From Rhodomicrobium sp. R_RK_3 (GTDB taxonomy: Bacteria > Pseudomonadota > Alphaproteobacteria > Rhizobiales > Rhodomicrobiaceae), in assembly GCF_002198715.1 (NCBI RefSeq), contig NZ_MWLK01000008.1, positions 208,983 through 272,982 on the forward strand: DNA of 64,000 nt. Reading direction: 5' to 3'. Position numbers and translations under genes: made by a program. Of this stretch, positions 16,780 through 49,253 are shown piece after piece. Below the pieces are notes generated by a model, which saw only the letters and a program-made list of their open reading frames with translations, had not been told where the DNA came from and ran no database searches. Numbering within the stretch: position 1 is the stretch's first letter; the number at the start of each line of letters is the position of its first letter.

Positions 16780-18018
16780 GTGACCATCGATGCCACCCAC
16801 GCCGTGAAGCCGGCGGCTGCCCGGATCATCCCGACGGTTGAAATCGCCGAGCTCGACCGCGATCCGCATGCCGTCTTTCGCCGCTACCGCCCGGAAACGC
16901 CGGTGGTGCGGCGCGTCGATGGCAGCCTCATCGCCATGCGGGCAGCCGATTTCGAGCGCTTGCTGGCCGATCCGCGCACGCGCCAGATGGAGACCGAGCT
17001 GTTTGAGCTGCGCGGCATCGTCGATGGACCGCTCTACGATATCTTTCAATATTCGATGCTGTTTTCCAACGAGCCGGAGCATCGCCGCCGCCGCGCGCCG
17101 CTGTCGCGGGCCTTCGCCTTCCGCATGATCGCGGCGCTGCGGCCGGGCATTCGCGCCGCCGCCACCGCCATTCTCGACCGCGTGGCGCCCGATGGCGAGA
17201 TGAACCTTCTGGACGATTTCGCCGCGCAGGTTCCGGCGCGCACCATCGCCACCATCGTCGGGCTGCCCGAGGCCGATATTCCCGATTTCACCCGTTGGGT
17301 CTACGACGTCTCGCTGGGCGCAAGCTTTTCCTTCAACGCCGATGATATCGGGCGGATGCAGCAATCCGCCGGCCATATCACCGACTATCTGGCGCAAATG
17401 CTTGCGGACCGCCGCGCCGCGCCGCGCGATGATTTTCTGACCGATTTCGTCAAAGCGGTGGACGAGGGGGGCGAGCTGACGCCCATCGAAGCGCTGGCTC
17501 AGCTCATCACCATCGTCGCCGCCGGCAGCGATACCACCCGCGCTTCCATGACCATCCAGACCGCGCTGCTGCTGGGGCACCGGGAACAATGGGATGCGGT
17601 TTGCCAGAATCCGGAGCTGATTCCGGGCGCGGTTCTGGAAGCCCTGCGCTTCGAGCCTTCCATCGGCGGCGCGCCCCGCTTCACCCTGGAAGATATCGAG
17701 CTCGACGGCGTCATCCTCCCCGCCGGGCGCATTCTCTCGCTCTCGGCGATCGCGGCCATGCGCGATCCGGCCGTTTACGCCGAGCCCGACCGCTTCAACA
17801 TCTACCGCAAGGACCATCCGCGCTGGCATTACGTGTTCGGCGGCGGCGCGCATCGCTGTCTCGGCGAGGCGCTGGCCAAGGCCGAGCTGGAAGAGGGGCT
17901 GGCCGCGCTCGCCGCCCGGTTCCCGACGCTCGAGGTCGTCGGCGAGCCGCTGCGCGTCACGGGCCACAGCGGCGTTCGCCGGGTGAGCAGCCTGCGCGTC
18001 GCGTGGCCGCAGCCATGA
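16780..18018 (+). CDS. Cytochrome P450
   Basis: 412 residues, typical of soluble bacterial class I P450s. All hallmarks are present: the I-helix oxygen-activation motif AAGSDTT (247-253), ExxR as E287-x-x-R290, and the haem-thiolate loop FGGGAHRCLG with Cys360. GTG start at 16780 has GGAG 7 bases upstream. No ferredoxin or ferredoxin reductase gene is adjacent, so redox partners must be encoded elsewhere. Substrate unknown. It ends 118 bases before the first Cascade gene on the same strand; whether the two are cotranscribed cannot be read from sequence, as no terminator is obvious between them. Confidence 0.95.
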   Translation: MTIDATHAVKPAAARIIPTVEIAELDRDPHAVFRRYRPETPVVRRVDGSLIAMRAADFERLLADPRTRQMETELFELRGIVDGPLYDIFQYSMLFSNEPEHRRRRAPLSRAFAFRMIAALRPGIRAAATAILDRVAPDGEMNLLDDFAAQVPARTIATIVGLPEADIPDFTRWVYDVSLGASFSFNADDIGRMQQSAGHITDYLAQMLADRRAAPRDDFLTDFVKAVDEGGELTPIEALAQLITIVAAGSDTTRASMTIQTALLLGHREQWDAVCQNPELIPGAVLEALRFEPSIGGAPRFTLEDIELDGVILPAGRILSLSAIAAMRDPAVYAEPDRFNIYRKDHPRWHYVFGGGAHRCLGEALAKAELEEGLAALAARFPTLEVVGEPLRVTGHSGVRRVSSLRVAWPQP

Positions 18019-18136
18019 TCGGGCCGACGCTTTCGCGCATCGCAGGGCGGAACGAACGGCCTCGCGCCGGGGCGGCGACTTGCCCGCCCGGCGCATCGCC
18101 GCGCATCCCCTCCCATTCATAGAACGAGCACAGATC

Positions 18137-19789
18137 ATGTCGGAGCCTTATTCGCTTTTGCGGCGCGCTTGGCTACCCGTCGCCCTGGCCGACGGCAGAC
18201 GTGCCTTCATCCGCCCCTCGGACATCAGCTCCGAGATCGACGGCAAGCGGATCATCCGTATCGCTTCGGGACGGCCGGATTGCGACGTCTGCCTGACCGA
18301 ATTCCTGATCGGCCTGCTGGCGGTGGCGCTGCCGCCCGCCGATGCCGCCGACTGGCATCGCCGCTATCGCGAGCCGCCCCGGAACGCCGAATTGCAGGCC
18401 AGTTTCGCCGCCTTCTCGAACGCGCTGGAACTCGACCGCGAGGGCCAGCAATTCTTCCAGGAGAGCGAAGCGCTGGCGGGAACGCCGCGGCCGGTCGCCA
18501 GCCTGCTGATCGATGCGCCGGGCGAAAAGACCATCCGCGACAACGCCGATCATTTCGTCAAGCGGGGCCGGGTGCGGGCGCTCTCCCGCGCCGGGGCGGC
18601 CATGGCGCTGGCGACCTTGCAGACCAGCGCGCCCTCCGGCGGGGCCGGCCATCGCACCTCGCTGCGCGGCGGCGGGCCGCTCTCGACGCTGGTGGTGCCC
18701 GGCACGTCCGGCCTCGGCGAGCCCTCGCTCTGGCAGCGGCTCTGGGCGAATGTCCCCTCCGGCTTCGGCGGCCTCGCCAAGGACGCCCCGCGCATCTTCC
18801 CGTGGCTCGCGGGCGCGCCCGTGGCGGCCACCCCGGCGGACGCCCACCCGGCGCAAGCCTTCTTCGCCATGCCGCGCCGCATCCGGCTCGTCTTCGAGCC
18901 CAATCCCGGCGGCCTCCCCTGCGACCTGCTCGGCATCGTCGACGACGTCATCGTCACCGGCTATGTCACCCAGCCCTGGGGGCGCGACTATTCGGGCTGG
19001 AGCGGCGCGCATCCGCTCAGCCCCTATTACCGGCCGAAGGGCGAGGGCGCCGGCCTCCGCCCGCTGCATTCGAAGGGCTCGCGGCCCGGCTACCGGCAAT
19101 GGCTCGGCGCGACCTTGAAGAGCGGCGACGGCAGGGTTCAGCCCGCCCGCTGCGTGGAGGAATTCTTCGAGCGCGCCGGGCAGTTTCCGGCGGCGGAGCG
19201 CCATGTCCTCGACCGGGCGCGGCTGCTGTTCGCGGGCTACGCCATGGACAAGATGAAGCCGCTCGATTTCAGCGAGGCGCTGCTTCCCCTCATCATCACC
19301 GGCGACCGGGCCGGCGACGAGGCCATCCGCCGCCTCGCCGAGCGCTGGGTCTCCGCCGCCGACAGCGTCTCGCTGCAATTGCTGTCCTGCGTGCGGCTCG
19401 GCCTGTTCAGCGGCCGGGTCGAGCCGGGCAGCGCCGTGCTGGAGGCGGTGCAGACCTGCTTCTGGGGCGAGACCGAGCATGGCTTCTACGCCGGCCTGCA
19501 CCAGGTGGCGGAGGCGATCACGGCGCGCCAGGACGAGGCCGAATTGGCCCGCGTCGAGGCCAATGCCGGGGCGGCGTGGCTGCGCTGCCTGCGGCGCGCG
19601 GCGCTCACCCTTTATGACGACGCCGTGCCCGTCGGGCGCGCCATCGGCCGCATCAAGAATGTCATCGACGGCCGGCGCATCCTCGGCCTTGCCCTCAGCG
19701 GCTACGGCCGGGGCGGCGAGGCACTGTTCGGAATGCTCGACCAGCCGCTGCCCCGCCACGCGGAAGAAGCCGAGAGGCAGGCGTCATGA
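18137..19789 (+). CDS. casA: Type I-E CRISPR Cascade large subunit Cse1 (CasA/Cas8e)
   Basis: 550 residues, slightly longer than E. coli CasA (about 500). Family landmarks include LLRRAWLPVALADG at the N-terminus, FIRPSDISS, TEFLIGLLAVAL, the RGGGPLSTLVV and LWQRLWANV region, and TGYVTQPWGRDYSGW(S). The C-terminal helical bundle is present. Cse1 reads the PAM and recruits Cas3 in characterised systems. No HNH or other nuclease insertion is visible. ATG 18137 is chosen over the longer frame at 18080 because the family N-terminus begins at MSEPYSLL; its ribosome site is weak. The stop overlaps the casB start (ATGA). Confidence 0.95.
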   Translation: MSEPYSLLRRAWLPVALADGRRAFIRPSDISSEIDGKRIIRIASGRPDCDVCLTEFLIGLLAVALPPADAADWHRRYREPPRNAELQASFAAFSNALELDREGQQFFQESEALAGTPRPVASLLIDAPGEKTIRDNADHFVKRGRVRALSRAGAAMALATLQTSAPSGGAGHRTSLRGGGPLSTLVVPGTSGLGEPSLWQRLWANVPSGFGGLAKDAPRIFPWLAGAPVAATPADAHPAQAFFAMPRRIRLVFEPNPGGLPCDLLGIVDDVIVTGYVTQPWGRDYSGWSGAHPLSPYYRPKGEGAGLRPLHSKGSRPGYRQWLGATLKSGDGRVQPARCVEEFFERAGQFPAAERHVLDRARLLFAGYAMDKMKPLDFSEALLPLIITGDRAGDEAIRRLAERWVSAADSVSLQLLSCVRLGLFSGRVEPGSAVLEAVQTCFWGETEHGFYAGLHQVAEAITARQDEAELARVEANAGAAWLRCLRRAALTLYDDAVPVGRAIGRIKNVIDGRRILGLALSGYGRGGEALFGMLDQPLPRHAEEAERQAS

Positions 19790-20364
19790 GGATGCATGTG
19801 CTCGACAATGAGGCTGAGATCGCCCGGGCCTGGTGGTCCAGGATGCAGCCGCATCATGGCCGCGACGGGCGCAGCGCCGCTAGCCGGCGCGCCTCCATCG
19901 CCAGGCTGCGCCACGCCTCCTCGTTGATGAAGGCCGCCTGCGAGCCCGCCACCGCCGATCTCTATGACGGCCTCGCCTGCAGCTTCCCCGCGAGCGACCT
20001 GCCGCGCGTGGCGCTGGTCGCCGGCGTGCTCGCCCATATCCGACGCGACAGCCACCTCTCGATCGCCGAGGCGCTCGGCCGGCCGCATGGCAGGCTGCCC
20101 GGGCCGCTGCTCAGCCCCTTGCGCTTCCGCCGCCTCGTCGCCGCCAGCGAGCCGGAGAGTCTGCTGGTCGCCTTCCGCCGGGTCGCCGAGATGCTGCGCG
20201 GCGAGATGAACGTCAAGGACGCCGCTGGCCTGCTGATGGCCTGGACCGACCCGCGCTACGCCGAGACCGCCCGCACCGCCTTCGCCTTCGACTATCACGG
20301 CGCCGGGTTCAAATTGCCGCCCGCCGCCGCTGCTCTCCATGCCGAGATCGCCGAGGCCCAATGA
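19786..20364 (+). CDS. casB: Type I-E Cascade small subunit Cse2 (CasB)
   Basis: 192 residues, mostly helical, Arg-rich, beginning EIARAWWSRMQP and containing the RASIARLRHASS basic stretch typical of Cse2. Two copies form the belly of Cascade and hold the displaced strand. Somewhat longer than E. coli Cse2 (160). Overlaps casA and casC by four bases at each end, so translation is coupled. Confidence 0.9.
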   Translation: MRMHVLDNEAEIARAWWSRMQPHHGRDGRSAASRRASIARLRHASSLMKAACEPATADLYDGLACSFPASDLPRVALVAGVLAHIRRDSHLSIAEALGRPHGRLPGPLLSPLRFRRLVAASEPESLLVAFRRVAEMLRGEMNVKDAAGLLMAWTDPRYAETARTAFAFDYHGAGFKLPPAAAALHAEIAEAQ

Positions 20365-21443
20365 CGCGCTTCATCCAACTCCACGCGCTGACCGTCTACC
20401 CGCCGTCGAACCCCAACCGGGACGATATCGGCCGCCCGAAGACCGCCAGCTTCGGCGGCGTCGAGCGGCTGCGCATCTCGTCCCAGGCGATGAAGCGGGC
20501 GATCCGCACCAGCCGCGCCTTCAAGGACCGCGTCGGCGCCCATCGCGGCGACCGCACCCAGCGGCTGGGTCAGATGATCGCCGACTATCTGACCTCCGCC
20601 GGGCTGGAGCCGCCCCAGGCGGTGGAAGGCGCGCGCTCGATCTGCGAGGTGTTCGGCAAGCCGAAGGACGCCCGCGACAAGCACCCGGTCTATATCGAGC
20701 AGCTTGCCTTCATCTCGCCGGAGGAGCGCGAGGCGGCCTTCCGCATGGCGGACCGAATCGTCGCCGGAGAGGGATTGCCCGACAAGGGCGTGCTCGTCGC
20801 CGAGGTGCTGCGCAAGACGGACACCGCGACCGACATCGCCATGTTCGGCCGCATGATGGCCGACAATCCGGACTTCAACCGCGAGGCCGCCGTGCAGGTG
20901 GCCCATGCGATCACCACCCACCGCGTCGACATCGAGGAGGATTTCTTCACCGCCGTCGACGACCTGAAGCGCCCCTCCGAGGATGCCGGGGCGGGCTTCA
21001 TCGGCGAGCTGGGCTTCGGCTCCGGCGTCTTCTATGTCTATTGCTGCATCGATCAGGGCCTGCTGGTCGCCAATCTCGGCGGCGACGAGGGCCTCGCCCG
21101 CGCCGCCATCGCCGGGCTGATCGAAGGGCTCGCCACCGCCGCCCCGACCGGCAAGCAGGCCAGTTTCGCGAGCCGCGTCCATGCCAGCTTTCTGCGCATC
21201 GAAAAGGGGCCGCAGCAGCCGAGGAGCCTCGCCGCGGCCTTCCTGAAGCCCATCCGGGCCGACGATCTGCTCGGCGCATCCATCGCCGCCATCGAGGGCG
21301 ACGGCACGGATCGCCTGCCCGGACTTGCCGCCGCGATGAACCGCGCCTACGGCTCCTGCTTCGACACGCATTACGTGATGAATGTCACCGCAGGCGCGGG
21401 ATCGCTCGCCGACGCCATCGCCTTTGCCGGGGATGAGCGATGA
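20361..21443 (+). CDS. casC: Type I-E Cascade backbone subunit Cas7e (CasC)
   Basis: 360 residues, almost the same length as E. coli CasC. The N-terminus FIQLHALTVYPPSNPNRDD and the RLRISSQAMKRAIRTS segment are strongly conserved in the family, and GFGSGVFYVYCCID marks the palm. Six copies coat the crRNA. ATGA overlaps at both ends. The reading frame is intact throughout. Confidence 0.95.
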   Translation: MTRFIQLHALTVYPPSNPNRDDIGRPKTASFGGVERLRISSQAMKRAIRTSRAFKDRVGAHRGDRTQRLGQMIADYLTSAGLEPPQAVEGARSICEVFGKPKDARDKHPVYIEQLAFISPEEREAAFRMADRIVAGEGLPDKGVLVAEVLRKTDTATDIAMFGRMMADNPDFNREAAVQVAHAITTHRVDIEEDFFTAVDDLKRPSEDAGAGFIGELGFGSGVFYVYCCIDQGLLVANLGGDEGLARAAIAGLIEGLATAAPTGKQASFASRVHASFLRIEKGPQQPRSLAAAFLKPIRADDLLGASIAAIEGDGTDRLPGLAAAMNRAYGSCFDTHYVMNVTAGAGSLADAIAFAGDER

Positions 21444-22225
21444 TGCATTTCCTCCTCTTCACCCTGGCGGCCCCGTTCGCCTCGTTCGGCGCCGTCGCCG
21501 TCGGCGGACGCCGGCCGAGCTGGGACCGCCCCGCCAAAAGCCAGGTGATCGGCCTGCTCGCCGCCGCGCTCGGCATTCCGCGCATCGACGAGGAACGCCA
21601 GCTCTCCCTCGCCGGCGATCTCGAATTCGCGGTCCGGGTGGATGACCCCGGCCGCGCCGCCACCGACTTCCAGACCGCCCAGGCGCCGAGCGAAGTCTCG
21701 ATGCGGCGGCGCGCCAAGACCGCCGGACCGATCCGCACGCGCGGCGATGAACTGGACTGCGACGAGTTGAAGACCATCCTGTCGCGGCGCGAGTACCGCC
21801 TAGGCAGCCATCACACCATCGCCATCTGGCGGCGCGCGGGCGAGGAGCCGTCGCTGACCGCGCTCGCCGCCGCGCTGCGGCGTCCCGCTTTCACGCCCTA
21901 TGCGGGCCGCAAGGCGCACCCGCTGATGTGGCCGATGGCGCCCGCCCTGATCGAGGCGGAGGGCCTGCGCGAAGCCTTCGCCGCCTTCGATGCCGCCTCG
22001 CCGGAACGGCTGGCGCTATGGCGCGATTTCGGCGTGCGGCATGACGCGCAACGCCCGATCTTTACCGACCTGTCCGCCCTCCCGGCGGCGGACCAGCGAA
22101 CGGCCATCGCCCGGCTCGATGAGCGCCGCGACGAGCCGGAAAACCGTGCGCAATGGCGGTTCGGTCTGCGGACCGAGGCCATGCTGCAACCGATACAGCC
22201 GCAGCAGCGGGATGACATGCCATGA
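21440..22225 (+). CDS. casD: Type I-E Cascade subunit Cas5e (CasD)
   Basis: 261 residues, a RAMP protein that caps the crRNA 5' handle. Family landmarks are LFTLAAPFASFGAVAVGGRR, then KSQVIGLLAAALGIPR, and TDFQTAQAP; also LSRREYRLG. Longer than E. coli CasD (224), but no extra recognised domain (in particular no HNH His-Asn-His pattern) is inserted. ATGA overlaps at both ends. Confidence 0.93.
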   Translation: MMHFLLFTLAAPFASFGAVAVGGRRPSWDRPAKSQVIGLLAAALGIPRIDEERQLSLAGDLEFAVRVDDPGRAATDFQTAQAPSEVSMRRRAKTAGPIRTRGDELDCDELKTILSRREYRLGSHHTIAIWRRAGEEPSLTALAAALRRPAFTPYAGRKAHPLMWPMAPALIEAEGLREAFAAFDAASPERLALWRDFGVRHDAQRPIFTDLSALPAADQRTAIARLDERRDEPENRAQWRFGLRTEAMLQPIQPQQRDDMP

Positions 22226-22929
22226 CCCAGCTTTTCCTATCCAAGGCCCGCCTTAAATCCGCCCAGGGCGAAGCTCTATCGGCGATCGCGCCGCTGCTCC
22301 TGCCGCAGGGCCGCGACCGGCAGGTCGGCCACGCGCACCGCATCCTCTGGCTGCTGTTCCAGAACGACGCCGACACCACGCGCGACTTTCTCTGGCGCGA
22401 CGAGGGCCGCGGCATCTACCTGATCCTGTCGCGGCGCCAGCCGACCGACCCGCACGGGCTGTTCGAGCTGGAAACCTCCAGTTTCGAGCCCAATCTGGCC
22501 GTCGGCGACACGCTCCGCTTCGTGCTGCGCGCCAATGCCATCGTCGCCAGCAAAAGCGCGCTCGGCGAAGATGAGGAGGCTGCCCGGCGGCGCGGCAAGC
22601 GCGTCGACATCGTCATGCATGTGCTCTACGACATGCCGCGCTCCGAACGCGCCGTGCAGCGCGAGCGGGTGGTGGTCGAGGAGGGGCGGAAATGGCTGGC
22701 CGGGCAGGGCAGCCGCGCCGGCTTCGAGGTCTGCCGCCCGGCGGGCGTCAGCGGCTACCGGCAGGTCGCCATCGAACGCCGCAACGGGCGCCCGGCCGGC
22801 TTTTCGGTGCTCGATTTCGAAGGCGAGATCCGCTTGACCGACCCGGCCGCCTTCATGGCCCGGCTGGCGATCGGCTTCGGCTCGGCCAAGGCTTTCGGCA
22901 ACGGCCTGATGCTGATCCGGCGGCTCTGA
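22222..22929 (+). CDS. casE: Type I-E crRNA endoribonuclease Cas6e (CasE)
   Basis: 235 residues. Contains the N-terminal HAHRILWLLF segment carrying the candidate catalytic His and the C-terminal glycine-rich loop GFGSAKAFGNGLMLIRRL, both diagnostic of Cas6e. It cleaves pre-crRNA in the repeat hairpin and stays bound as the Cascade head. In normal loci cas1 and cas2 follow, but here the gene is followed by 596 bases without a gene and then by an unrelated transporter on the other strand. Confidence 0.95.
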   Translation: MTQLFLSKARLKSAQGEALSAIAPLLLPQGRDRQVGHAHRILWLLFQNDADTTRDFLWRDEGRGIYLILSRRQPTDPHGLFELETSSFEPNLAVGDTLRFVLRANAIVASKSALGEDEEAARRRGKRVDIVMHVLYDMPRSERAVQRERVVVEEGRKWLAGQGSRAGFEVCRPAGVSGYRQVAIERRNGRPAGFSVLDFEGEIRLTDPAAFMARLAIGFGSAKAFGNGLMLIRRL

Positions 22930-22946
22930 GCCATCCGCGAACAGCC

Positions 22947-22974
22947 TTGACCAATTGAATTCACGCTCCATACT
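22947..22974 (+). promoter_or_regulatory. Promoter-like segment in leader position after cas6e
   Basis: TTGACC and CATACT are separated by 16 bases in an AT-richer patch, resembling sigma-70 -35 and -10 boxes. A transcript would start at about 22981, exactly at the first repeat-like fragment, as in the leader of an active array. Chance matches of this quality are common. Confidence 0.3.
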
Positions 22975-22979
22975 TACAA

Positions 22980-23067
22980 GGATCCCGGCACCGGCCGGGC
23001 TGAACCGGCGGATCGCGAATTGCCGTTCCCCGTAACTGCTGGTCTCCGCATTTGCGGAGCTCTTTCG
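22980..23067 (+). repeat. Two degenerate type I-E CRISPR repeat-like units with one 33-base spacer
   Basis: Unit 1 (22980-23007) has CCCGG/CCGGG arms and ends CTGAACCG, close to the ATGAACCG 5' handle of type I-E crRNAs. Unit 2 (23041-23067) has a perfect CTCCGCA/TGCGGAG hairpin but a changed 3' end. They match at about 16 of 27 aligned positions and are 33 bases apart, the type I-E spacer length. No further regular copies follow, so this is at best a remnant. Confidence 0.3.
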
Positions 23068-23127
23068 CCGCGGAATTGCCGCTCCATCGGAGAGCATGGC
23101 GCGCAAAACGTGCCGATCATTCTCCTC

Positions 23128-23235
23128 CGTCGTCCCGGGCGGCCGTCAGGCCGGACCGGGACCAATCATATATCCGCGAATGCTGCGGCAAGAGGTGAGG
23201 CGAGTGGGCCCCGGCTCTGCCGGCCGGGGCGACGG
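23128..23235 (+). repeat. Dispersed 108-base intergenic repeat, copy 1
   Basis: Begins CGTCGTCCCGGGCGGCCGTC and ends CCGGGGCGACGG. Same length and clear similarity, strongest at both ends, to 38591-38698, and similar in the opposite orientation to 42272-42381. Both ends are palindromic (CCCGGGC..., CCCCGGCTC...GCCGGGG), so each copy could fold into two hairpins. Confidence 0.8.
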
Positions 23236-23349
23236 AATTTGAAAGGTTTGCCGTGGGAGAGGGGCGGCTGCGGCAAGGGGGCAGCGCCGATTTCCGTACT
23301 AAGCCCAGGATTACGAAAACGTGTCTGCGCGCGGGCGATTCGCGCGCTA

Positions 23350-23377
23350 ATTTGTGTCTGGCGCCGCGGGGCTGAAC
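23350..23377 (+). repeat. Isolated type I-E repeat-like fragment
   Basis: Ends GCGGGGCTGAACCGGCAGA, matching 22996-23013 at 15 of 16 positions across GGGCTGAACCGGCxGA and resembling the 3' half of type I-E repeats. The 5' arm is broken (TCTGGCG instead of a complementary CCCCGC), so it could not form the usual hairpin. Possible array debris; chance is not excluded. Confidence 0.25.
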
Positions 23378-23525
23378 CGGCAGACAGACTGGCATCCAGG
23401 CTGACCGCAAAGGCGTTCCCCGCGATGCGCCGAGGACGCTCCCGCCCGCCGTCGCCTTGCAGAAAATGGTCCCCGCGAATGCCGGGATCTCGGGGCGGCG
23501 GCGGGCCGCGCCGCGCGCCCCTAAC

Positions 23526-24248
<723 letters not shown>

Positions 24249-24259
24249 GGCGTTCTCCT

Positions 24260-26242
24260 TCAGGCTGCGGCGTCGGCGGGGGCGCCGAGATAGGCTTCGA
24301 TGACGCGCGGATCGCTCTGCACGCGGGAGGGCACGTCCTCGGCGATCTTCTGGCCGAAATCGAGCACCGTCACCGTGTCGCAGATCTTCATCACCACATC
24401 CATGTGGTGCTCGATCAGGATCAGCGTGATGCCCTCCGAGCGGATGCGCTCGATGATGCGCATCAGTTCCTTGATGTCGGGCGCGGTGAGGCCGGCGGCG
24501 GGCTCGTCGAGCAGCAGCAGCACCGGATCGAGCGCCAGCGCGCGGGCGATTTCCAGGAGGCGCTGCTGGCCATAGGCGAGGTTGCGCGCCTGCTCGTCGG
24601 CGACTTTGGCGAGGCCGACGAAATCGAGGATCGAGAGCGCGCGCTTGCGCGCTTCCTGTTCCTCGTGGCGCGAGGCGGCGGTGTTCAGCATCACGCCGGC
24701 CATCGAGGTTTCATAGGTGTGATGCAGGCCGACCAGCACGTTTTCCAGCGCGGTCATCTCGCCGAAAAGCTGGACGTTCTGGAAGGTGCGGGCGATGCCG
24801 AGGCTGGCGATGGCGGAGGGCGTGCGCCCGGCGATCTCCTCGCCGAGAAGCTGGACCGAGCCGGCGGTCGGCTGATAGACGCCGGAGAGCACGTTCATCA
24901 TCGTGCTCTTGCCGGAGCCGTTCGGGCCGATCAGCCCATGCACCGTCGCCCGCTTGACGAGGATATCGACGTTGTTCAGCGCCTTCAGGCCGCCGAACTG
25001 CATCAGGATGCCCTTGACGTTGAGCAGCACCCCGTCCGGCGCCTCGAATTCGCGCGGCTTCCAGACGGTCGAGGCATCGACGACCACCTCGCCGGTGTCG
25101 GCGGCCTCGCGCTTGGGACGCAGGGCGGCGAAGGTCTTGGTCAGGTAGCCGATGATGCCGTCGGGCAGGTAGTAGACGACGAACAGGATCATCAGGCCGA
25201 AGATCGTCAGCCGGTAGTCGGTGACCGATTCCAGCGTCATGGCGAAGGGGAAGAACGCCACGCACAGCGCGCCGGGGATGAGGCGGTTATACTTGTCCGG
25301 CGCGTTGCGGATGAAGGCCGACGCCACGATGACGATGGCGAGCGCCGCGATGAAAGCCGTGAGCACCCGGAACAGGAAGATGTCGCTGAGCAGGTTCGGC
25401 AGATAGACGATGATCGCCGCGCCGACGATCGGCCCGAGCCGCGATTTGCGCCCGCCGAGGATGACGCCGAGCAGGAACAGGATGGTCAGCTCGAAGGAAT
25501 AGGTGTTCGGCGAGATATACTGCTCCGAATAGGTATAGAGCGCGCCGGCGAGACCGGCGAGGGCCGCGCTCACCACCACGGCATAGACCTTGTATCGGTA
25601 GACGTTGACGGCCATGCAGTCCGAGGCGATCGGGCTGTCGCGCAGGGCTTCGAAGGCGCGGCCGAAATGGCTGCGCACGATGCGGTTGATGACCAGCACC
25701 GACAAAGCCGCGCAGATCAGCACGACATAGTAGAACTGCACGTCGCGCGTCGCGTCGACCAGCCCCTTGGCGCCGAACATGGCGAGGAAATCCGGCTTCC
25801 GGAGCGCGATGCCGAGCGGTCCGTTGGTGAGGAAATCCATTTCGTTGATGAGGATCTGCACGATGGTGCCGAAGGCGAGCGTCACCATGGCGAGATACGG
25901 GCCGGTCACCTGCAGGGCGGGCAAGGCGAGCAGCAGCCCGAACAGCGCCGTCACCGCGATGGCCATCGGCACGAGCAGGAAAAAGCCCCAGCTCTTGATC
26001 CAGGGCGCGGCGTCGCCGAACTGGAAGATCATCACGCCCGCCGTGTAGCAGCCGATGCCGAACAGCGCCGCATGGCCGAGCGACACCTCGCCGACATAGC
26101 CGACGACGATGTCGAGGCCGAGCAGCACGATGGCATAGATGCCGATGACGATCAGCAGATGCAGGTAATAGGGGTTCTTGATGACGAGGGGAAAGGCGGC
26201 GAGCGCGGCTAAGACTACGATGGCTCCGATGGCATTGCGCAT
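24260..26242 (-). CDS. Fused LivM permease - LivG ATPase of a branched-chain amino acid type ABC transporter
   Basis: 660 residues in one frame. Residues 1-345 form a LivM-type permease with 8-10 hydrophobic helices (GYVGEVSLGHAALFGIG, the cytoplasmic loop FGRAFEALRDSPIASDCM). After a linker of about 65 residues (with a short further hydrophobic pair) comes a LivG ATPase domain (about 410-655): Walker A GPNGSGKST, LAYGQQRLLEIARAL, Walker B LLLLDEPAAGL, IEHHMD. Start ATG 26242 follows directly after livH (7-base gap); the frame open to 26335 is rejected because it overlaps livH. The fusion enforces 1:1 permease:ATPase stoichiometry. Confidence 0.93.
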   Translation of the reverse strand: MRNAIGAIVVLAALAAFPLVIKNPYYLHLLIVIGIYAIVLLGLDIVVGYVGEVSLGHAALFGIGCYTAGVMIFQFGDAAPWIKSWGFFLLVPMAIAVTALFGLLLALPALQVTGPYLAMVTLAFGTIVQILINEMDFLTNGPLGIALRKPDFLAMFGAKGLVDATRDVQFYYVVLICAALSVLVINRIVRSHFGRAFEALRDSPIASDCMAVNVYRYKVYAVVVSAALAGLAGALYTYSEQYISPNTYSFELTILFLLGVILGGRKSRLGPIVGAAIIVYLPNLLSDIFLFRVLTAFIAALAIVIVASAFIRNAPDKYNRLIPGALCVAFFPFAMTLESVTDYRLTIFGLMILFVVYYLPDGIIGYLTKTFAALRPKREAADTGEVVVDASTVWKPREFEAPDGVLLNVKGILMQFGGLKALNNVDILVKRATVHGLIGPNGSGKSTMMNVLSGVYQPTAGSVQLLGEEIAGRTPSAIASLGIARTFQNVQLFGEMTALENVLVGLHHTYETSMAGVMLNTAASRHEEQEARKRALSILDFVGLAKVADEQARNLAYGQQRLLEIARALALDPVLLLLDEPAAGLTAPDIKELMRIIERIRSEGITLILIEHHMDVVMKICDTVTVLDFGQKIAEDVPSRVQSDPRVIEAYLGAPADAAA

Positions 26243-26249
26243 GATCGTC

Positions 26250-27125
26250 TCAGACCTTCTTGATCGCGGTTTTGCCGAACAGCCCTGCGGGCTTGAGGGC
26301 CAGGACGATGAGCAGCAGCACGAGGCCCGGCACATCCTTATAGCCGGTGGCGATATAAAAACCGGTGAGCGTTTCGATGACGCCCAGCAGCAATCCGCCG
26401 ACGATGGCGCCGAGCGCGCTGTCCAGCCCGCCGATGATGGCGACGGCGAAAGCCTTTAGCGCCAGTACCGAGCCCATCGTCGCGCCGGTCAGCGTAACGG
26501 GGGCGACGAGGATGCCGGCGAAGGCGGCGGTCATCGACGACATCGCGTAGGACAGCGAGATCATCAGATTGGTGTTGATGCCCATCAGGCCGGCGGCGTC
26601 GCGGTCGTTCGAGGTAGCGATCACGGCCTTGCCGTAGATGGACTTGCGGTTGAAGAACTCGACGGCGGCCATCATCGCCAGCGCGCCGATGACGACGAAG
26701 ATCTCCATCGGCAGCACGCGGACGGCGCCGAATTGCAGCGGCACTTCGCTCACCGGCGAGGGAAATTTCAGATCGTCGCGGCCCCAGATGTTCTCCGCCA
26801 TGTTGCGGAAGATGATGCCGAGCGCGATGGTCGCCATGATCCAGCCGAATTCCGACTTGATGCGCATGGCGGGGCGCACCGCCAGCCGCTCGACCACGAG
26901 GCCCTGCGCGAGGCCGAACAGCAGCACGAAGGGGATCATCAAGAGATAGGGCACGCCCATCAAGACCAGCGTCAGCCCGACCATGGCGCCGAGCATCAGC
27001 GCCTCGCCCTGGCCGAAATTGAGCGTGCGCGAGGTGGCGAAGGTGAGCTGGTAGCCGAAGGCGATGGTCGCGTAGATCATGCCGAGGGCGACGCCGCTGA
27101 CGACGAGTTGCAGGAAAATTTCCAT
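26250..27125 (-). CDS. livH: Branched-chain amino acid type ABC transporter, permease LivH
   Basis: 291 residues, multi-spanning. Family motifs: N-terminal LQLVVSGVALGMIYATIAFG, TLNFGQGEALMLGA and the cytoplasmic GKAVIATSNDRDAAGLMGI loop. It pairs with the LivM domain of the fused downstream protein. Separated from livK by a strong hairpin at 27156-27195, the usual arrangement for making binding protein in excess. Confidence 0.95.
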   Translation of the reverse strand: MEIFLQLVVSGVALGMIYATIAFGYQLTFATSRTLNFGQGEALMLGAMVGLTLVLMGVPYLLMIPFVLLFGLAQGLVVERLAVRPAMRIKSEFGWIMATIALGIIFRNMAENIWGRDDLKFPSPVSEVPLQFGAVRVLPMEIFVVIGALAMMAAVEFFNRKSIYGKAVIATSNDRDAAGLMGINTNLMISLSYAMSSMTAAFAGILVAPVTLTGATMGSVLALKAFAVAIIGGLDSALGAIVGGLLLGVIETLTGFYIATGYKDVPGLVLLLIVLALKPAGLFGKTAIKKV

Positions 27126-38444: not shown

Positions 38445-38590
38445 GGAGGCGCTTCGTTAGCTCCACAGATTGGGGAGGCCGCGTTGCGAAGGGGTGTTGA
38501 TGAGCGGGGGCGGATTGACCGATGGTTCGTGACCGCTCACCCCGGCCCGCCGCCAATGGAGACTTTTGCGTAACGCGGGGCCTATCCCCC

Positions 38591-38698
38591 CGTCGTCCCG
38601 GGCGGCCGTCAGGCCGGACCGGGATCCATTTGCGGAACAGCCGGCACCATGCTTGCGGAGAGGCGAGTAGGCCCCGGCTCTTACGGCCGGGGCGACGG
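38591..38698 (+). repeat. Dispersed 108-base intergenic repeat, copy 2
   Basis: Same length as and clearly similar to 23128-23235; the first 33 bases are identical and the last 40 nearly so, while the middle diverges. The hairpin-forming ends are therefore the conserved part. Confidence 0.8.
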
Positions 38699-38788
38699 CA
38701 TAAATTGTCGCGTTTAGCAAAGCCCGCCAATGGGCGAGGGGACGATCGTGCCGCTTGGCGATCGCTGTGCTCATTGCGTCGGCTCCTT

Positions 38789-42239: not shown

Positions 42240-42271
42240 GATCGAGAGGGATTTCGGGCCCACCCCCTATT

Positions 42272-42381
42272 CCGTCGCCCCGGCCGTCAGAGCCGGGGCC
42301 CACTCGCTTCACCTCTTGACGCAGCACTTGTGGTTCGATGATTGGGTCCCGGCTCACCGCTTCGCGGCGTCCGGGACGACG
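42272..42381 (-). repeat. Dispersed 108-base intergenic repeat, copy 3 (inverted)
   Basis: Begins CCGTCGCCCCGGCCGTC and ends CGTCCGGGACGAC, i.e. the reverse of the order seen at 23128-23235 and 38591-38698. About 110 bases long, more divergent than the other two, in the gap between the convergent allA and hydantoinase genes. Confidence 0.7.
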
Positions 42382-49148: not shown

Positions 49149-49253
49149 CGAAATCCCCGCGCAGGCGGGGATCCAGTAATCACAAACTCAGATCCACTCT
49201 GCCTAACCGCCCATGCTGCGGAGTACTGGGTCCCCGCCTGCGCGGGGATTTCG
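49149..49253. repeat. Inverted pair of 30-base CGAAATCCCCGC-type elements
   Basis: Left arm 49149-49178 and right arm 49224-49253 are reverse complements with one mismatch; each arm also contains its own CCCCGC...GCGGGG palindrome. A single diverged copy of the left arm with part of the inner sequence (GGATCCAGTnATCACAAA) recurs at 63510-63552. Confidence 0.8.

What the first reader, a model, noticed from the sequence alone, without database searches (positions are those of the whole stretch)
18137..22929. Intact type I-E Cascade operon without cas3, cas1 or cas2
Seen: five complete reading frames (cse1, cse2, cas7, cas5, cas6e), each joined to the next by a four-base ATGA overlap, with no frameshift or stop. 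The genes on both sides are unrelated (P450 upstream, branched-chain transporter on the other strand downstream), so neither the helicase-nuclease nor the adaptation genes are in the locus. Known: type I-E loci normally carry cas3 upstream and cas1-cas2 downstream; Cascade without Cas3 binds DNA but does not cut it. Inference: the retained coupling and open frames suggest continued selection, so this could be a DNA-binding/silencing complex, one that borrows Cas3 or crRNAs encoded elsewhere, or a recent loss.
Basis: partly seen in the sequence, partly recalled or inferred. Interest (0 to 1): 0.75.

Follow-up and report, generated by a model that had tools for sequence, protein, structure and literature searches.

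The report
Orphan Cascade with a decayed guide gene
This bacterium has kept, in working order, all five proteins of a CRISPR complex that finds DNA, but has lost the part that cuts DNA and the parts that record new viruses; next to the genes is a worn-down stretch that still looks able to make one guide RNA, so the complex may now bind DNA rather than destroy it.

Summary
An intact cse1-cse2-cas7-cas5-cas6e operon (18137-22929) lacks cas3, cas1 and cas2. The assembly (5.79 Mb, 39 contigs, 99.5% complete) has no Cas1. Its only Cas3 belongs to a type I-C operon whose cas8c runs into an IS21-type end at a contig end. All 29 related loci read keep cas3 and, where the held DNA reaches it, cas1. New here: degenerate type I-E repeats start 50 bp downstream of cas6e. 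psiR1 (22979-23007), a 31-nt spacer and psiR2 (23039-23067) keep the repeat hairpin through compensatory changes, behind a promoter-like site. psiR1 keeps the handle and psiR2 the hairpin, the asymmetry of CreA-type guide genes. Similar elements with a seed-matched AAG-PAM target lie between cas3 and cse1 in nine related loci. In the window no such target was found, so CreTA addiction is not shown. The subunits show no decay: conserved residues are kept, GC3 matches the host, the branch is not accelerated. Best reading: a stripped I-E effector kept for guide-directed, non-cutting DNA binding. Main rival: a relic of recent loss. Sequence alone cannot separate the two.

The parts
18137..19789 (+). 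cse1/casA (Cas8e), 550 aa, intact
   Evidence: TIGR02547 197 bits, PF09481 4e-84
19786..20364 (+). cse2/casB (Cas11e), 192 aa, intact
   Evidence: TIGR02548 78.5 bits
20361..21443 (+). cas7e/casC, 360 aa, intact
   Evidence: TIGR01869 290.6 bits
21440..22225 (+). cas5e/casD, 261 aa, intact
   Evidence: TIGR01868 135.7 bits
22222..22929 (+). cas6e/casE, 235 aa, intact; conserved His and glycine-rich loop kept
   Evidence: TIGR01907 107.5 bits; alignments with E. coli CasE and with relatives
22947..22974 (+). sigma-70-like promoter TTGACC-16-CATACT, just upstream of psiR1
   Evidence: only promoter-like hit in 17900-23700; 0.3 expected from shuffles; consensus match only
22979..23007 (+). psiR1: degenerate I-E repeat, 22/29 to the nearest relative's repeat, 8-nt handle CTGAACCG 8/8, stem CCCGGC/GCCGGG
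   Evidence: best repeat-profile hit in 64 kb; 1 of 1000 shuffles of the region reaches the score; fold; identities
23008..23038 (+). psiS: 31-nt spacer-like segment; no second match in the genome at up to 3 mismatches over 22 nt
23039..23067 (+). psiR2: degenerate repeat in register, 19/29, stem CTCCGC/GCGGAG intact, handle degraded (4/8)
   Evidence: register and stem identified by inspection, so partly post hoc
23121..23238 (.). about 118-bp dispersed element of this genome lying inside the repeat relic
   Evidence: 76-88% identical copies elsewhere in the own genome
23351..23379 (+). psiR4: repeat relic; last 15 nt CGCGGGGCTGAACCG match the relative's repeat exactly, stem lost
23380..23412 (+). 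33-nt spacer-like segment between psiR4 and psiR5
   Evidence: only TGAACCG-N28-36-GYTCCCC junction in the genome
23413..23441 (+). psiR5: repeat relic; first 12 nt GCGTTCCCCGCG kept, 3' half lost

Best explanation
[quoted passage not shown] cas3, cas1, cas2 and the working array are gone (shown for the assembly, within the limits of the searches; Cas2 was not sought on its own). The five Cascade subunits remain intact (shown). Downstream lies a degenerate mini-array, psiR1-psiS-psiR2, with a promoter-like site directly 5' of it (sequence shown, activity inferred). Inferred mechanism: the mini-array is transcribed; Cas6e cuts at the two retained hairpins and gives an RNA with 5' handle CUGAACCG, a 31-nt guide and a 3' hairpin; Cascade loads it and binds a DNA site without cutting. 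The role would be gene repression of the CreA/CreR or scaRNA kind, not immunity. Relatives of this system carry such guide genes between cas3 and cse1. Because those need only Cascade, they offer a reason why Cascade alone was spared. The target and present-day activity are not shown.
For: Subunits intact and assigned. Near-invariant residues kept: 7 departures in 177 columns, 6 of them conservative by inspection, no worse than complete systems. GC3 0.86-0.90 equals the neighbours, intergenic GC 0.66. Branch lengths match those of the nearest complete system. Neutral drift of only 10% leaves no stop-free operon in 200 simulations, whereas the repeats have drifted about 25-35%. psiR1 is the best repeat hit in the window and its score is reached in 1 of 1000 shuffles. 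The only I-E-like junction in the genome is here. Two of four stems are intact, each with a compensatory change; 3e-5 to 6e-4 under independent drift. Promoter-like site. Handle and hairpin asymmetry 8/8 vs 4/8 and 14/21 vs 15/21, as reported for two-psiR creA genes (PMC8501985). The same kind of element plus seed and AAG target in nine related loci. In Citrobacter rodentium I-E, Cascade genes but not cas3, cas1 or cas2 are needed for such a module (PMC12055562).
Against: No seed-plus-AAG target near the element: the best local seed match is 8/10, the level of shuffled spacers. The two exact AAG+seed sites elsewhere lie in coding sequence, and the degenerate pattern used is not enriched over its control. 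psiR2 was chosen partly because of its hairpin. psiR4 and psiR5 have lost their stems. No expression data. Intact frames would also follow from a recent loss.
Confidence: 0.42

Rival explanations
1. Relic: cas3, cas1-cas2 and most of the array were deleted recently, and the Cascade genes are still open because too little time has passed. The psiR elements are leftover array pieces or an old CreA that has lost its target.
For: No target for either spacer. psiR4 and psiR5 stems are broken. A dispersed element lies inside the relic. The I-C operon in the same genome is also broken, so CRISPR systems seem to be decaying here.
Against: The repeats have diverged far more than a stop-free neutral operon allows, unless they were degenerate before the loss. 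psiR1 and psiR2 stems are kept with compensatory changes.
Confidence: 0.38
2. CreTA addiction: psiR1-psiS-psiR2 is a creA whose Cascade complex represses a toxin, so loss of Cascade is lethal while cas3 and cas1-cas2 are free to go.
For: Repeat asymmetry as in creA. CreTA-like elements with 9-10/10 seed and AAG PAM in nine related I-E loci, seven of them exact. An I-E CreTA is known in C. rodentium.
Against: The defining seed-matched target with PAM next to the element was tested for and not found. No CreT candidate recognised. Relatives have the module upstream of cse1, not downstream of cas6e.
Confidence: 0.1
3. Split system: the I-E Cascade works with the I-C Cas3 encoded on another contig.
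For: The only Cas3 with HD and helicase domains in the assembly is that I-C protein, its ORF open.
Against: The I-C Cas3 belongs with Cas8c rather than Cse1 (general knowledge of the families). Its operon is broken. No usable I-E array found.
Confidence: 0.04
4. Ordinary split system hidden by the draft assembly: cas3e, cas1, cas2 and an array lie in an unassembled gap.
For: 39 contigs, and the I-C locus ends at a contig end; the array search used strict patterns.
Against: The window locus is contiguous on both sides. The genome is 99.5% complete by marker genes, and there is no Cas1 at E up to 1.
Confidence: 0.06

Closest known systems
Complete type I-E CRISPR-Cas (nearest: unnamed same-order genome G390, locus L058)
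   Same: Same order of subunits; Cse1 51-53% identical, Cas6e 63%; repeat ends in the same CTGAACCG handle
   Different: L058 has cas3, cas1 and a regular array of 44 repeats; the window has none of these
CreA/CreTA (type VIII toxin-antitoxin) including the type I-E CreTA of Citrobacter rodentium
   Same: Two divergent repeats flanking one spacer, handle kept in psiR1 and hairpin in psiR2; needs Cascade but not cas3, cas1 or cas2
   Different: No seed-matched PAM target or toxin found; sits downstream of cas6e instead of between cas3 and cse1
CreTA-like elements in the relatives' cas3-cse1 gaps (L044, L045, L046, L068, L071, L072, L077, L078, L080)
   Same: Degenerate repeats, mostly paired, with the same asymmetry
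   Different: They have a 9-10/10 seed match beside an AAG PAM; the window does not
Cas3-less type I effectors: HNH-Cascade (I-F1), Tn7-like CAST, type IV
   Same: Effector without Cas3
   Different: No HNH insertion seen in Cse1 (normal length, full-length Cse1 match); no transposase among the ten flanking genes examined

Membership tests
Type I-E effector complex (Cascade) | Cse1, Cse2, Cas7e, Cas5e and Cas6e encoded together above curated cut-offs | tested here: met
Type I-E effector complex (Cascade) | Cas6e catalytic His and glycine-rich loop kept | tested here: met
   aligned with E. coli CasE and with relatives; identity of the catalytic His from general knowledge
[quoted passage not shown]
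   only a I-C Cas3 found with helicase and HD models
[quoted passage not shown]
   PF01867, no match at E up to 1
[quoted passage not shown]
   no separate search was made
[quoted passage not shown]
   one junction only, the degenerate one at this locus; arrays with unusual repeats would be missed
CreA-type guide gene | Two divergent degenerate repeats around one spacer, psiR1 handle and psiR2 hairpin better kept | tested here: met
   8/8 vs 4/8; 14/21 vs 15/21; psiR1-psiR2 15/29; criterion from PMC8501985
CreA-type guide gene | Spacer seed (nt 1-5, 7-11) matches a nearby site beside a PAM | tested here: not met
   best 8/10 locally, equal to shuffled; met in nine related loci by the same test
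CreTA addiction module | Toxic CreT released when Cascade is lost | not testable with these tools
   needs experiment
Decaying relic | Stops, frameshifts, loss of conserved residues or accelerated branch in the cas genes | tested here: not met
Tn7-like CAST | tnsABC and tniQ beside the effector | tested here: not met
   none among the ten flanking genes scanned with Pfam

The most novel reading that the evidence does not exclude
A natural minimal type I-E system: five-subunit Cascade plus a single dedicated guide-RNA gene with co-varied hairpins and its own promoter, maintained as an RNA-programmed DNA-binding repressor after complete loss of cas3, adaptation genes and the immune array.
Probability: 0.3. 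Interest if true: 0.78.

Novelty: new variant of a known kind. Interest (0 to 1): 0.52.

Why it matters
Known CreTA and CreR-type guides ride on complete CRISPR systems. A genome in which only Cascade and one degenerate guide gene remain would show that the regulatory role alone can preserve the effector after immunity is gone, a prediction of the addiction idea that can be tested directly. It would also be a natural counterpart of the Cas3-deleted Cascade used for gene silencing. Even if this copy is a relic, the relatives give a set of type I-E guide genes with exact seed and PAM targets that can be tested at once.

Tried and rejected
A plain I-E hairpin pattern search of the genome was useless, because the genome carries hundreds of dispersed ATCCCCGC-N4-GCGGGGAT palindromes (872 hits on the two strands). 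Rfam found nothing at the locus. Spacer searches in the own genome and in viral contigs found nothing. The AAG+seed hits elsewhere in the genome are in coding sequence and the pattern is not enriched over its control. The near-repeat GAATTGCCGYTCC in psiS and 56 bp further on was considered as a self-target and rejected, because it leaves the seed unmatched. No I-C array junction was found. Searches for coding remnants of cas3 or cas1 in the flanks gave only chance matches. A plasmid search with the intergenic region found nothing. dN/dS could not be computed: no other genome of the genus is held and the nearest Cse1 is about 53% identical.
Full report
Observation. The window holds five complete, four-base-overlapping reading frames at 18137-22929. 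Curated models assign them to Cse1, Cse2, Cas7e, Cas5e and Cas6e, all above cut-off. The flanks are a P450 gene 118 bp upstream and, on the other strand, a branched-chain amino acid transporter cluster. No recognisable cas3 or cas1 remnant is present in either flank.

Genome. The assembly (5.79 Mb, 39 contigs, 99.49% complete) gives no Cas1 match at E up to 1. Cas3 models find one true Cas3, of type I-C, followed by cas5c and by a cas8c that is cut after about 400 aa. The last bases of that contig match the DNA just upstream of an annotated IS21 istA gene in Bradyrhizobium, so cas8c appears to be interrupted by an IS21-type element. No match to a Cas7 model of the I-B/I-C type was found and no I-C array junction. 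Neither system is complete in this genome. Cas2 was not searched for on its own.

Relatives. Of 397 genomes of the order, 15 including this one encode Cse1. I read 14 of the other loci and 15 named loci from GTDB. Every one has cas3, and every one in which the held DNA reaches that far has cas1; one of them, L044, ends soon after cse2 begins. Regular arrays with a 29-nt repeat were found in most. The window is the only exception in this set. Its closest relative is L058 (Cse1 53% identical; bootstrap 100 in the concatenated tree).

State of the genes. Across alignment columns that are nearly invariant in the other systems, the window departs at 7 of 177. Six of the seven (D to E twice, F to Y, R to H, L to V, L to I) I judge conservative; the seventh is H to Q. 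Complete systems show similar numbers. GC at third positions is 0.86-0.90, like the neighbouring genes, while the intergenic DNA is 0.66. The branch to the window is about as long as that to L058 for every subunit tested (Cse1, Cas7, Cas5, Cas6e). The Cas6e catalytic His and glycine-rich loop are present. So there is no sign of decay. This does not prove present selection if the loss was recent.

The overlooked element. A profile made from the relatives' repeats gives its best hit in the whole window at 22979-23007, 50 bp after cas6e and on the same strand. The best match to its 3' half lies at 23365-23379. One shuffle in 1000 of this intergenic region reaches either score. In the whole genome the only TGAACCG-N28-36-GYTCCCC junction is at 23373-23421, within the same gap. 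Both relic handles read CTGAACCG, with the C that among the relatives' repeats occurs only in L058, the closest relative, and in L076. I take this to be the remains of the system's own repeats. A 118-bp element that is dispersed in this genome lies between the two relic pairs.

The first pair has the anatomy of a guide gene. psiR1 and psiR2 start 60 bp apart, leaving a 31-nt spacer, and both fold into the 6-bp, 4-nt-loop hairpin of the I-E repeat. Their stems differ from the common CCCCGC/GCGGGG by one compensatory pair each, at different places. In simulations of four drifting repeats, two or more intact stems with a compensatory change occur with frequency 3e-5 to 6e-4. psiR2 was recognised partly by its hairpin, so this number flatters the case. 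psiR1 keeps the handle (8/8 against 4/8 in psiR2) and psiR2 keeps the 5' part slightly better (15/21 against 14/21); the two are 15/29 identical. Cheng et al. describe this asymmetry for two-repeat creA genes, with 11-16 of 30 identical positions between the two repeats (PMC8501985). The only promoter-like site in 17900-23700 ends five bases before psiR1.

Context from the relatives. Scanning the relatives for repeats outside arrays showed paired degenerate repeats in the cas3-cse1 gap of L044, L045, L046, L068, L072, L077, L078 and L080, and single ones in several others. In L044, L045, L046, L068, L071, L072 and L080 the ten seed positions (1-5, 7-11) of the spacer all match a site in the same gap directly beside AAG; L077 and L078 match at nine. 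Random 11-mers from the same regions do so in 6 of 14000 trials. These are CreTA- or CreR-like guide genes. An experimentally studied type I-E case is C. rodentium, where Cascade but not cas3, cas1 or cas2 is needed (PMC12055562). Which of the two kinds the relatives' modules are (toxin control or cas autoregulation) I did not resolve. Promoter scans of four of these gaps gave one consensus site.

The same test in the window fails. For psiS the best local seed match is 8/10 without AAG, the level of shuffled spacers, and the second spacer gives no better. Two exact AAG+seed sites exist elsewhere in the genome; both lie in coding sequence, and the degenerate pattern used to find them gives fewer hits than its control. 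I therefore do not file the element as a CreTA. It has the form of a creA, but the defining target was not found.

How it most likely works. The best-supported reading is a stripped effector whose remaining plausible function is guide-directed DNA binding without cutting, with the adjacent element as its guide gene. The steps from transcription to target are inferred. The argument for persistence is that the repeats have diverged by about a quarter to a third, while simulated neutral drift of 10% already puts about nine stops into the operon. This argument fails if the repeats were already degenerate when the rest was lost, as CreA-type repeats are. The relic reading is therefore almost as likely. 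Use of the I-C Cas3, and a hidden complete system in an assembly gap, are unlikely.

Novelty. Incomplete type I loci are common (general knowledge). An intact Cas3-less I-E effector with only a CreA-like guide gene beside it did not turn up in my paper searches, but that library is partial and I read only a few papers.

Noticed in passing
L044 8829-8906; L045 11028-11105; L046 11613-11703; L068 7373-7462; L072 7526-7604; L077 7512-7590; L078 7449-7537; L080 7605-7695: Pairs of degenerate I-E repeats between cas3 and cse1 whose spacer seed (1-5, 7-11) matches a nearby AAG-PAM site at 10/10 (9/10 in L077 and L078); L071 has a single repeat (7458) with a 10/10 target. Likely unreported type I-E CreTA or CreR modules in proteobacteria, including Bordetella ansorpii and Allofranklinella.
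   Followed up: partly
G000 contig C31 271736-276044 (L005 9736-14045): Type I-C cas3-cas5c-cas8c operon in the same genome, with cas8c apparently interrupted by an IS21-type end at the contig end; cas7 and cas1 not found anywhere in the assembly.
   Followed up: yes
own genome, e.g. G000:C1:45877, C8:194455; window near 49150: Hundreds of dispersed ATCCCCGC-N4-GCGGGGAT palindromes, many in pairs about 80 bp apart. They mimic I-E repeat hairpins and would confuse automatic CRISPR finders.
   Followed up: no
window 23121-23238; also 42269-42381 and 38587-38701; L005 1408-1524: A dispersed element of about 118 bp with many 76-88% identical copies in the genome, one of them inside the repeat relic.
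   Followed up: partly
window 23017-23029 and 23073-23085: The 13-nt near-repeat GAATTGCCGYTCC occurs in psiS and again 56 bp further on, after psiR2; unexplained, perhaps an old duplication.
   Followed up: no
window 24260-26335: Branched-chain transporter permease and ATPase domains encoded as one 691-aa open frame.
   Followed up: no
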